From an uncultured Crocinitomix sp. (lineage in GTDB: Bacteria; Bacteroidota; Bacteroidia; Flavobacteriales_D; Crocinitomicaceae), in NCBI GenBank assembly GCA_905478225.1, contig CAJQHR010000012.1:1-64000 (forward strand): DNA of 64,000 bases, in the 5' to 3' direction. Numbering within the stretch: the first letter of the stretch is position 1; each line of letters starts with the position of its first letter. Under the pieces are notes generated by a model. It searched no databases. It was not told the DNA's origin and saw only the letters and a list, made by a program, of their open reading frames with translations. This document shows, piece after piece, positions 4,754 through 7,637 of the stretch. The translations under genes and the position numbers were made by a program.

Positions 4754-5313
4754 AAATTTTAATTACAGTTTTAAGTTTGCTTATTGGGGTGTGTTATGCC
4801 CAAGACTCAACTTTGGTGAATGTAATTGAAATGGATAAAGAAGATCAAAGGCGAATGGAATTTGCAGGAGTTTTTAAGAGCTCCATTAGTTTAGAGGGTG
4901 GCGGTAAATCCGGATTTGCTGGCTTGTCCTACGACTTATTGCTCTCGCGTAAATGGCGGATAGGATTTGGAGGCGGCTTTTGCGGGGCTGGAGCAGACGT
5001 AAAATTTTACCCATTTGGAGTAAAACGTGACAAGTTGGTTTTTAATGTTGGTGCAAGAGCAAACGCCTTTTTTCCTATAAACGGAACAAACTATATGTTT
5101 TACTCGGCGCCTCTCGGACTCTCTTTCTTTACTGTTAATCGCATAAATCTAGAATTAGATGCTGGTCCGCTGTTCAAACAGCCTTTCAATCAATCGGAAA
5201 CGCAATTGGGAATCGGAAACGACATTAATTGGGTTTGGTTCTCCCTAAAAGTGGGCTACCGATTTTCGTTTTATGCTATGAAACGCGCGCGAGCATTAGA
5301 TCGCTTAGATTAA
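4750..5313 (+). CDS. Secreted or outer-membrane hypothetical protein
   Basis: The 187-residue product starts with a clear signal peptide (MKILITVLSLLIGVCYA, cleavage before Q). The mature part alternates hydrophobic and polar residues with many glycines and aromatics (ISLEGGGKSGFAGLSYDLLL, WRIGFGGGFCGAGADVKFYP, KVGYRFSFYAMKRARALDR), a pattern suggesting a small beta-barrel in the outer membrane. I do not recognise a named family. It is the last gene of the SAM-hydrolase operon, overlapping the ABM gene by four bases. Function unknown. Confidence 0.75.
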   Translation: MKILITVLSLLIGVCYAQDSTLVNVIEMDKEDQRRMEFAGVFKSSISLEGGGKSGFAGLSYDLLLSRKWRIGFGGGFCGAGADVKFYPFGVKRDKLVFNVGARANAFFPINGTNYMFYSAPLGLSFFTVNRINLELDAGPLFKQPFNQSETQLGIGNDINWVWFSLKVGYRFSFYAMKRARALDRLD

Positions 5314-5433
5314 ACCGAATTATCGTTCAATTTCATAAAGTTTTGTCAAATTCTGATAAAAATCAGTTTTAATACGGGCTTTTTTGTTGCCAAATTTAGC
5401 CTTTTAACTGTTTTTAAACGTTTTTTTTCGCCC

Positions 5434-5441
5434 CATATTTG
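5434..5441 (+). promoter_or_regulatory. Probable -7 box (CATATTTG) for the small RNA
   Basis: Seven of eight positions match TAnnTTTG. It lies a few bases before the first structured part of the small RNA candidate and would place the start of transcription near 5447. The upstream element is only a T-rich run. Confidence 0.4.
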
Positions 5442-5446
5442 TATCT

Positions 5447-5578
5447 ATTAGATTTGACGCAGGGGGTTAGCTGAAAATCCCAAATAGAGTAGGCAAACGA
5501 TTTGTTTTATTTCTTTAAAACAGAAATCGGTTAACGATAAGCCGAGATGGAAGAGTAGGGCCATCTCGGCTTTTTTTG
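5447..5578 (+). ncRNA. Candidate structured small RNA of unknown family
   Basis: Between a promoter-like box and a strong terminator lies about 130 bases with no credible reading frame but clear secondary structure. A small GGG/CCC helix can form at about 5463-5481. A longer hairpin pairs CGATTTGTTTTA (5498-5509) with TAAAAC (5516-5521) and AAATCG (5524-5529), leaving a two-base AG bulge. Then follows an 11-bp perfect terminator stem (5540-5571) with a T run. I could not match it to 6S RNA, SRP RNA, tmRNA or a riboswitch I know. It may be a free-standing sRNA, or an attenuated leader for the lipoprotein gene starting at 5766. Confidence 0.5.
5540..5577 (+). terminator. Intrinsic terminator
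   Basis: AGCCGAGATGG at 5540-5550 pairs perfectly with CCATCTCGGCT at 5561-5571 around a 10-base loop and runs into seven Ts. It is the strongest terminator in the window and defines the 3' end of the small RNA candidate; it could also end the operon ending at 5313. Confidence 0.85.
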
Positions 5579-5765
5579 TTTTTATACTTTTTTAGTGTTG
5601 TGTGATTAAGAATTAGAGTAGAATCGCAAACCATGCTTAGCTTGGTTTCTTTGGATTGACTTAATATATGCGCATTCATATCAGAAAGGAGATTCGAATT
5701 GATGTAATCTTAATTTTAAGTTAACGCAGTAGGCTAAAAACTCACGGACATTTGAAAAGAAACAA

Positions 5766-7081
5766 ATGATAAACAGGACTTTATTAAAATTCGGATGCTA
5801 TGCGACACTATTATTAACTTTTAGTTGCGAAATAGAAGGTTGCACAGATCCGCATTAAATTATAACCCCGAAGCCACAGAAAATGATTGCTCCTGTTTCT
5901 ATGAAGAAATGTGGACAGAAGAAGTGATTGATGGCGTAACATACCTTGTTATAGATGACTATATAAGCGAAAGTGTTGTCTTGGATGCTGACGAAATGTG
6001 GTTGCTCTCAGGACCTACAGTTGTTGAAACGGGCGTCATATTAACCATCATGCCAGGAACAACGATTTATACAGACGGCTCAGAAGATATATTCCTATCC
6101 ATTTCTATGGGAGCGAAAATTGCTGCTTGCGGAACAGCAGAAGAACCAATTATGTTTACGCCAATGATTGATGATCCTGAACCGGGTTATTGGGGCGGTT
6201 TGGTTTTAAATGGTTTGGCGCCGATAAACAACGGACCTACTGCCTATGGAGAAAGCGGCACAGGGGCTGATGCTGGCGATAATTCTGGAAGCTTATGTTA
6301 TGTAAGAGTAGAATATGCAGGCAAAATGATTGGAACCGATAACGAAATGAATGCTTTTAGTTTTATAGCATGTGGTGCTCGAACAGAGTTGAATCATTTA
6401 CAGGCCTATATGTGTGTAGATGATGGTTTTGAATTTTTTGGTGGGCCTCATTCCGGTATGCTGTGGCAACAGGTTATGGTGATGATGGATTTGATTGGCA
6501 ACACGGTTGGGTTGGAAATGGACAATTCTGGCTTGTTGAGGCTGGAGGAATTACATCTCATAGAGGAAGGAATTGAGGGATATAACTTGAATCAAACAGA
6601 CGTAGAACTTCTTCCATATTCGGACCCTAAATTGGCAAATATCTCTGTAATAAATCTCAGTGAAAATAGTCATCATACGGGATTCTATTTGTCTTCTGAT
6701 ACCAAAGGAAGTTTCATGAATATGGTCATCCATGGTTTTCAAGATGAAGGCTGTCAAGTCACACGTAATTTGACGATTGAAAATATGGAGGCAGAAGAAT
6801 TAACCCTGACGCATTCAATTATTGATAATGCGAACCCTTTGTTATTCCAGGATAATGATTTTAATATCGTTGCTCCTTCGTTTTCATTTGCCAATGCAGC
6901 AAATAATAATACAGTGGCATCAGGTGGTTCTTCAGTTGGATTTTTATATGGCATATTTGGAACTACCACAACTGGAGCAGGTGACCCAACAACTCTGGAT
7001 CCTTGGTTTTTGCCAGCCAATTATATTGGTGCCGTTCCTGATGGAGATGATTGGACCGCCGGTTGGACGATACATCTTTAA
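5766..7081 (+). pseudogene. Frameshifted surface lipoprotein with beta-helix-like body
   Basis: ATG 5766 opens a lipoprotein signal (MINRTLLKFG...LLLTFSC) followed by EIEGCTDP. The frame then stops at TAA, while the shifted frame continues ALNYNPEATENDCSC, the usual continuation of the Bacteroidota motif GCTDPxALNYNPxAT; the lesion is at about 5850-5856. The body (about 400 residues) matches a Bacteroidota family with repeated blocks such as TIMPGTTIYTDG, YWGGLVLNG and YVRVEYAG. A G-run deletion near 6443-6446 moves AVATGYGDDGFDWQHGWVGN out of frame, and one extra G near 6563-6566 restores it before GIEGYN, so the open frame there encodes a wrong segment. Three lesions in one gene suggest decay. 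Proteins of this type are surface-exposed with unknown ligand. Confidence 0.8.
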
Positions 7082-7159: not shown

Positions 7160-7582
7160 CTATCCTACAACTTCTTCAGTTGAAAAATGGAAGTTAGATT
7201 CGATCTCAGCATTTTCATCTGAATCAGAACCATGAACTGCATTTTCTCCTTTTGAAGTAGCGTATGCTTTTCTAATTGTACCTTCAGCAGCCTCAGCTGG
7301 ATCAGTAGCTCCAATTAATGCACGGAAATCAGCAACTGCGTTTTCTTTTTCTAAAATCATTGCAACGATTGGTCCTCCTGACATATAATCAACCAATTCT
7401 CCGTAAAACGGACGTTCATTATGTACAGCATAAAACTCACCAGCAGCTTCTTTTGAAAGTTGTTTCAATTTCATTGCTTTAATTGTGAAACCAGCCTCAA
7501 TAATCATGTCGGTGATTTTCCCAGTGTATCCTTTAGCTACTGCCTCAGGTTTTATCATTGTAAATGTTCTATTTGTTGCCAT
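7160..7582 (-). CDS. ndk: Nucleoside diphosphate kinase
   Basis: Transfers the gamma-phosphate of ATP to nucleoside diphosphates through a phosphohistidine, keeping NTP and dNTP pools balanced in the cytoplasm. The 140-residue product has the usual length. It opens [18 protein letters not shown] with the conserved substrate-binding lysine, and the active-site histidine is His117 in NAVHGSDS. The start at 7582 was chosen over an open extension to 7618 because homologues begin at RTFTMIKP and because a TATCTTTG promoter box lies at 7605-7612, inside that extension. Monocistronic, with a shared hairpin terminator 24 bases past its stop. Confidence 0.97.
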
Positions 7583-7604
7583 TGCAATTGTTTTAAATTT
7601 TGGG

Positions 7605-7637
7605 CAAAGATACATCACTTTTTAAAACAAAAACAAA
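7605..7637 (-). promoter_or_regulatory. ndk promoter (TTTG-N21-TATCTTTG)
   Basis: On the minus strand TTTG (7637-7634) is followed after 21 bases by TATCTTTG (7612-7605), an exact match to the Bacteroidota -33/-7 promoter layout. Transcription would begin near 7599, about 17 bases before the ndk ATG. Confidence 0.7.

What the first reader, a model, noticed from the sequence alone, without database searches (positions are those of the whole stretch)
5434..5578. Unassigned structured small RNA with its own promoter box and strong terminator
Seen: a TAnnTTTG-like box, a small GGG/CCC helix, a bulged 12-bp hairpin (5498-5529) and a perfect 11-bp terminator with a T run, with no reading frame in between. 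I cannot match it to a known RNA family. It may be a regulatory sRNA or an attenuated leader for the lipoprotein gene at 5766.
Basis: partly seen in the sequence, partly recalled or inferred. Interest (0 to 1): 0.62.

Follow-up and report, generated by a model that had tools for sequence, protein, structure and literature searches.

The report
Free-standing small RNA with DUF805b pseudoknot
The spot holds a real, conserved small RNA gene of Crocinitomix bacteria whose front third is a small RNA knot (Rfam DUF805b) that elsewhere sits a fixed distance before start codons, so it probably soaks up whatever factor reads that knot.

Summary
Window 5434-5578 holds a promoter box, a small G/C helix, a bulged 12-bp hairpin and a perfect 11-bp terminator, with no conserved reading frame. 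It is not wholly unassigned: 5461-5495 matches Rfam RF02914 (DUF805b), 35.0 bits against a gathering score of 35.6, and two orthologues exceed the cut-off. The whole RNA recurs in 7 of 9 genomes of the same genus (Crocinitomix, Crocinitomicaceae) and in none of the other 231 genomes searched in the family. All helices are kept with compensatory changes. In the five relatives where it can be seen, the next gene is convergent, so this is a stand-alone sRNA and not a leader of the lipoprotein at 5766. Two further results bear on mechanism. In 116 DUF805b sites the loop before GAAAA pairs with the bases after GAGUA (109/116 versus 52 in shuffles), making the element an H-type pseudoknot. In 103 of 109 ordinary DUF805b leaders the AUG lies 18-29 nt after GAGUA (control 2%); the sRNA has none there. 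It instead repeats GAGUAGG in its invariant terminator loop. Best reading: a decoy sRNA for the unknown factor that reads DUF805b leaders. The decoy step is inferred, not shown.

The parts
5408..5415 (+). conserved upstream promoter block CTGTTTTT (about -33 region)
   Evidence: invariant in all 7 orthologues
5434..5441 (+). -7 box CATATTTG (TAnnTTTG type), probable promoter of the sRNA
   Evidence: ATTTG invariant in 7 orthologues; TAnnTTTG is the flavobacterial sigma-A -7 box (PMC9723704)
5449..5456 (+). second possible -7 box TAGATTTG, perfect here, TAGATTTA in most relatives
5461..5495 (+). DUF805b element (RF02914), H-type pseudoknot: P1 5462-5465/5478-5481, GAAAA 5473-5477, P2 5470-5472/5492-5494, GAGUA 5487-5491
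   Evidence: cmscan 35.0 bits, E 2.9e-8; pseudoknot covariation in 116 sites
5498..5529 (+). middle bulged hairpin, 6+6 bp
   Evidence: kept with different sequence in G089, G071, G011
5540..5577 (+). intrinsic terminator, 11-bp stem 5540-5550/5561-5571, loop AAGAGUAGGG 5551-5560 with a second GAGUAGG (5553-5559), T run
   Evidence: GAGUAGG in the loop invariant in 7 of 7 orthologues
5456..5578 (+). stretch covered by covariance model R1, most of the sRNA transcript (start about 5445-5460)
   Evidence: R1 hits 95.7-148.7 bits in 7 congeneric genomes

Best explanation
A stand-alone trans-acting sRNA of about 120-130 nt, specific to the genus Crocinitomix. It carries a complete DUF805b pseudoknot at its 5' end, a spacer hairpin, and a terminator hairpin that displays a second GAGUAGG in its loop. 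In ordinary mRNAs the same pseudoknot sits about 24 nt before the AUG of genes for exported proteins, lipoproteins, GG-leader peptides, proteorhodopsin and others. Proposed mechanism: the sRNA is a decoy that binds, without being translated, the factor (an RNA-binding protein or part of the initiation machinery) that recognises DUF805b, and so tunes all DUF805b leaders together when it is made. Shown: the structure, the orthology, independence from neighbouring genes, the pseudoknot by covariation, the fixed AUG spacing of leaders, and the lack of an AUG in the sRNA. Inferred: that it is transcribed, that a factor exists, and that it is titrated.
For: DUF805b match at 5461-5495 and above the cut-off in two orthologues, 40.0 and 38.3 bits. 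Full-length orthologues in 7 of 9 congeners. P1 and pseudoknot kept by compensatory change within the sRNA: GCU:AGC, GCU:GGC, GUC:GAC. The terminator module is the best conserved in the divergent orthologues (25-28 of 30 identical against 21-34 of 45 for the middle hairpin), and GAGUAGG in its loop is invariant. No ORF starts near the pseudoknot in any of the 7 copies, whereas 103 of 109 other DUF805b sites have an AUG 18-29 nt downstream (control 10 of 436). Downstream genes in relatives are convergent. Three large-genome congeners hold 19-21 DUF805b hits each, a regulon that a decoy could serve.
Against: No binding factor is known. G071 keeps the sRNA, with a compensated pseudoknot, although no other DUF805b copy above 20 bits was found in that 94%-complete genome, and the window's own genome has only three or so leaders. 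CsrB-type decoys usually carry many more than two sites. In the terminator loop GAGUAGG lacks the pseudoknot context. No transcript data.
Confidence: 0.5

Rival explanations
1. A classical base-pairing sRNA: it pairs with target mRNAs through the terminator loop or other single-stranded parts, and the DUF805b pseudoknot only protects the 5' end or helps binding to a chaperone.
For: The terminator stem-loop is conserved in sequence as well as in structure. Rfp18, a structured flavobacterial sRNA, is thought to act by pairing through a stem-loop (PMC9723704).
Against: A duplex test of the sRNA and of its terminator loop against DUF805b leaders of the same genomes gave no consistent excess over shuffles; other targets were not tested. 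The repeat of exactly the DUF805b heptamer in the loop is unexplained.
Confidence: 0.24
2. DUF805b is a small-molecule aptamer (riboswitch) and the sRNA is a ligand-responsive regulatory RNA, as with riboswitch-controlled sRNAs such as Rli55 or EutX.
For: Compact 35-nt H-type pseudoknot with invariant GAAAA and AGAGUA, the size of known small aptamers; upstream of many dispersed genes.
Against: The led genes share no metabolic pathway: lipoproteins, lanthipeptides, proteorhodopsin, DUF805. No alternative fold competing with the terminator was evident.
Confidence: 0.15
3. Cis-acting attenuated leader of the lipoprotein gene at 5766.
For: The gene is on the same strand 190 nt downstream.
Against: The gene is absent beside the orthologues in G047, G060, G071, G011 and G089, where the next gene is convergent. 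It is frame-broken here, and the terminator shows no competing antiterminator.
Confidence: 0.04
4. A decayed DUF805b leader left without its gene, with a chance terminator.
For: A DUF805b leader with a broken ORF exists elsewhere (L040).
Against: Orthologous in 7 species with compensatory changes, a conserved promoter and an invariant terminator loop.
Confidence: 0.03

Closest known systems
DUF805b RNA (Rfam RF02914, clan CL00115)
   Same: 5' third: P1, GAAAA, AGAGUAGG tail; just under the gathering score in the window, over it in two orthologues.
   Different: DUF805b is filed as cis-regulatory and here precedes genes at a fixed spacing; this copy has no gene and ends in its own terminator with a second GAGUAGG.
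CsrB/CsrC and RsmY/RsmZ decoy sRNAs (own knowledge)
   Same: Free RNA carrying more than one copy of the motif found in regulated leaders.
   Different: Two motif copies only, different motif, no CsrA-type partner identified.
Riboswitch-containing sRNAs Rli55/EutX (own knowledge)
   Same: A cis-regulatory RNA element joined to a trans-acting sRNA body that could sequester a factor.
   Different: No ligand, no known sequestered protein, different element and hosts.
Rfp18 of Flavobacterium (PMC9723704)
   Same: Structured, conserved flavobacterial sRNA.
   Different: Reported as conserved across the genus Flavobacterium and thought to act by base pairing; sequence relation not tested here, and R1 has no hit in the other genomes of the order that were sampled.

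Membership tests
DUF805b (RF02914) | score at or above the gathering cut-off 35.6 bits | tested here: not met
   window 35.0 bits; orthologues L052 40.0 and L047 38.3 meet it, L050 30.6 and L051 24.7 do not
DUF805b (RF02914) | P1 helix, GAAAA, AGAGUAGG tail | tested here: met
   alignment; parsed
DUF805b (RF02914) | position upstream of a coding sequence (cis-regulatory type) | tested here: not met
   no ORF at the usual 18-29 nt in any of the 7 copies; terminator instead
CsrB-type decoy sRNA | several copies of the motif of the regulated leaders in a non-coding RNA | tested here: met
   two GAGUAGG, one within a full DUF805b
CsrB-type decoy sRNA | binds and titrates a regulatory protein | not testable with these tools
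   needs pull-down or genetics
6S RNA / 6S-Flavo | match to the Rfam models | tested here: not met
   no 6S family in the scans at gathering or at E up to 5
trpB ncRNA motif (RF04312) | gathering score 59 bits | tested here: not met
   24.1 bits, E 0.43
transcription attenuator leader | conserved same-strand gene behind the terminator | tested here: not met
   convergent gene behind it in five relatives

The most novel reading that the evidence does not exclude
DUF805b is a pseudoknot translation-initiation element used in Flavobacteriales, whose ribosomes ignore Shine-Dalgarno sequences: it docks a ribosome-associated or initiation factor at a fixed ~24 nt from the AUG of a dispersed regulon (exported proteins, lanthipeptides, proteorhodopsin), and this sRNA is the dedicated trans-acting titrator of that factor.
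Probability: 0.2. Interest if true: 0.85.

Novelty: new variant of a known kind. Interest (0 to 1): 0.56.

Why it matters
DUF805b has no function that I could find in the papers held. A free-standing copy of a cis-regulatory element points to a shared trans factor, and so makes the function testable by pull-down with a natural bait. The pseudoknot and the fixed spacing to the AUG suggest control of translation initiation in a phylum whose ribosomes do not use Shine-Dalgarno pairing (PMC9976891), in front of genes such as proteorhodopsin and lanthipeptide precursors.

Tried and rejected
A pattern scan for the terminator loop over GTDB contigs was too loose; its hits were mostly chance, apart from Crocinitomix records that gave the genus name. 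Weak R1 hits outside the genus were DUF805b leaders, unrelated terminators or coding sequence. The attenuator idea was rejected by synteny. Pairing of the sRNA with DUF805b leaders was not consistently better than shuffles. A promoter-box enrichment directly upstream of DUF805b leaders was weak, so the claim that leaders in general start at the pseudoknot was dropped. A loose pattern search for missed DUF805b copies in congeners was swamped by chance. The invariant AUG-NNN-GAG-UAG in the terminator (3-codon ORF) is better explained by the GAGUAGG repeat. Searches for a paper on DUF805b found nothing useful, and the original description (10.1093/nar/gkx699) is not held. The covariance-fitted alignment A2 misplaced the inserted base of G011 and G071, so pairs were counted on explicit sequences instead.

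Full report
OBSERVATION. The described parts are all in the sequence. On the + strand: a TAnnTTTG-type box CATATTTG at 5434-5441; a second box TAGATTTG at 5449-5456; helix P1 5462-5465/5478-5481; a bulged hairpin 5498-5503/5524-5529 plus 5504-5509/5516-5521; an 11-bp terminator 5540-5550/5561-5571 with a ten-base loop and a T run. No ORF of 60 aa or more covers it. The RNA folds at -37.3 kcal/mol against -25.4 for dinucleotide shuffles, z -3.66, none of 200 as good.

FAMILY. The whole window gives only a tRNA at Rfam gathering level, but a permissive scan of 5300-5800 finds RF02914, DUF805b, at 5461-5495 with 35.0 bits (cut-off 35.6), E 2.9e-8. Orthologues score 40.0, 38.3, 30.6 and 24.7.

ORTHOLOGUES. 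A DNA search of relatives found full-length copies in G047, G060 and G097 (93-94%) and in G089, G071 and G011 (73-79%). A covariance model of the seven (R1) searched over 240 genomes of the family gives seven strong hits (95.7-148.7 bits), all in the window's own genus (7 of 9 genomes; the two without it are G031 and the 84%-complete G081); the next best hits have E 1.6e-4 or worse and are leaders, other terminators or coding sequence. In 199 genomes of the order only the two sampled congeners that carry it ring at E 0.001. Contigs of G071 and G097 have the same lengths and matches as public records named Crocinitomix, so the genus is Crocinitomix, family Crocinitomicaceae, Flavobacteriales.

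STRUCTURE KEPT BY COMPENSATION. The middle hairpin is CGAUUU/AAAUCG plus GUUUUA/UAAAAC here, CGAU/AUCG plus CGUUU/AAACG in G089, CGAU/AUCG plus GUUU/AAAC in G071, and GCUGUA/UACAGC plus GAUUUUAA/UUAAAAUC in G011; all pairs form. The terminator changes G-C to A-U at its foot in G011. Between the window and the divergent orthologues the terminator module is 25-28 of 30 identical, the DUF805b module 25-28 of 35-36, and the middle hairpin 21-34 of 45. The loop heptamer GAGUAGG is invariant in all seven. It is the same heptamer as in the DUF805b tail of the window copy.

INDEPENDENCE. Upstream, the promoter block CTGTTTTT (5408-5415) and ATTTG (5437-5441) are invariant in the seven. Downstream, the gene is convergent in G047, G060, G071 and G011 (ndk, in G060 with a 97-aa ORF before it) and in G089 (a glycosyltransferase-like ORF), and G097 ends at a contig edge. 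The window's ndk at 7160-7618 shows the same neighbourhood with the lipoprotein inserted between. The RNA is therefore not a leader of the lipoprotein.

WHAT DUF805b LOOKS LIKE ELSEWHERE. RF02914 hits occur in 116 of 150 genomes of the family, up to 21 per genome, and in 89 of 199 of the order at E 1e-4. I parsed 116 sites from loci in hand. The last three loop bases before GAAAA pair with the three bases after GAGUA: at the variable position 109 of 116 form standard pairs (UA 54, GC 37, CG 6, AU 5, GU 5, UG 2) against a shuffle mean of 52 and maximum of 68 in 2000 shuffles. The Rfam model as printed by cmscan shows only P1, so its score cannot create this correlation; whether the original authors drew the pseudoknot I could not check. 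The element is thus an H-type pseudoknot. Within the sRNA orthologues the same pairs are GCU:GGC (window, G089, G011), GCU:AGC (G047, G060, G097) and GUC:GAC (G071).

FIXED SPACING. In the 109 sites outside the sRNA, the first AUG opening a frame of 30 codons or more lies 18-29 nt after GAGUA in 103 (median 24). Anchors shifted upstream in the same sequences give 10 of 436. Of the exceptions looked at, two have a broken or shorter frame with an AUG near the usual place. By a simple heuristic about half of the led proteins have a signal peptide or lipobox, and some 15 are short GG-leader peptides. Single examples were confirmed as DUF805, bacteriorhodopsin-like (Pfam) and class I lanthipeptide (NCBIfam). 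In G089 (L028) the element stands before each of a row of near-identical small peptide genes. The sRNA copies are the exception: seven of seven have no such ORF.

MECHANISM. The sRNA is a DUF805b leader from which the gene has been replaced by a spacer hairpin and a terminator that shows the key heptamer again. The simplest reading is a decoy for the factor that reads the element. The fixed distance to the AUG suggests that this factor acts in translation initiation; ribosomes of this phylum do not use Shine-Dalgarno pairing (PMC9976891). This step is inference. Against it: G071 keeps the sRNA while no other DUF805b above 20 bits was found there, and only two motif copies are present. Direct pairing with leaders was tested and is inconclusive.

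VERDICT. A real, genus-restricted sRNA gene; a new variant built on a known but functionally unknown cis-element. Structure and independence are well supported, the decoy mechanism moderately, and expression is untested.

Noticed in passing
window 5766-7081: The lipoprotein ORF is frame-broken: MINRTLL...SCEIEGCTDPH then stop, continued in another frame as ALNYNPEA... (probably four bases lost, or an assembly error).
   Followed up: partly
window 5720-5748: GTTAACGCAGTAGGCTAAAAACTC resembles a decayed copy of the DUF805b 5' half just before the broken lipoprotein gene.
   Followed up: no
L014 396-428, 959-998, 1300-1331 (own contig C24): Three DUF805b elements in a row, before two small lipoproteins and a 40-aa membrane ORF.
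   Followed up: partly
L028 (G089 C111): DUF805b before each of six neighbouring small peptide genes, five of them near-identical with a GGG leader end and the sixth longer, followed by what looks like a DUF692-type gene (not tested); a repeated RiPP-like array.
   Followed up: partly
L019, L020, L045, L276, L277: Flavobacterial proteorhodopsin genes carry a DUF805b leader in several genera.
   Followed up: partly
window 5548-5559 and orthologues: The terminator loop reads AUG-NNN-GAG-UAG (MEE, MDE, MGE) in all seven orthologues; probably a by-product of GAGUAGG.
   Followed up: partly
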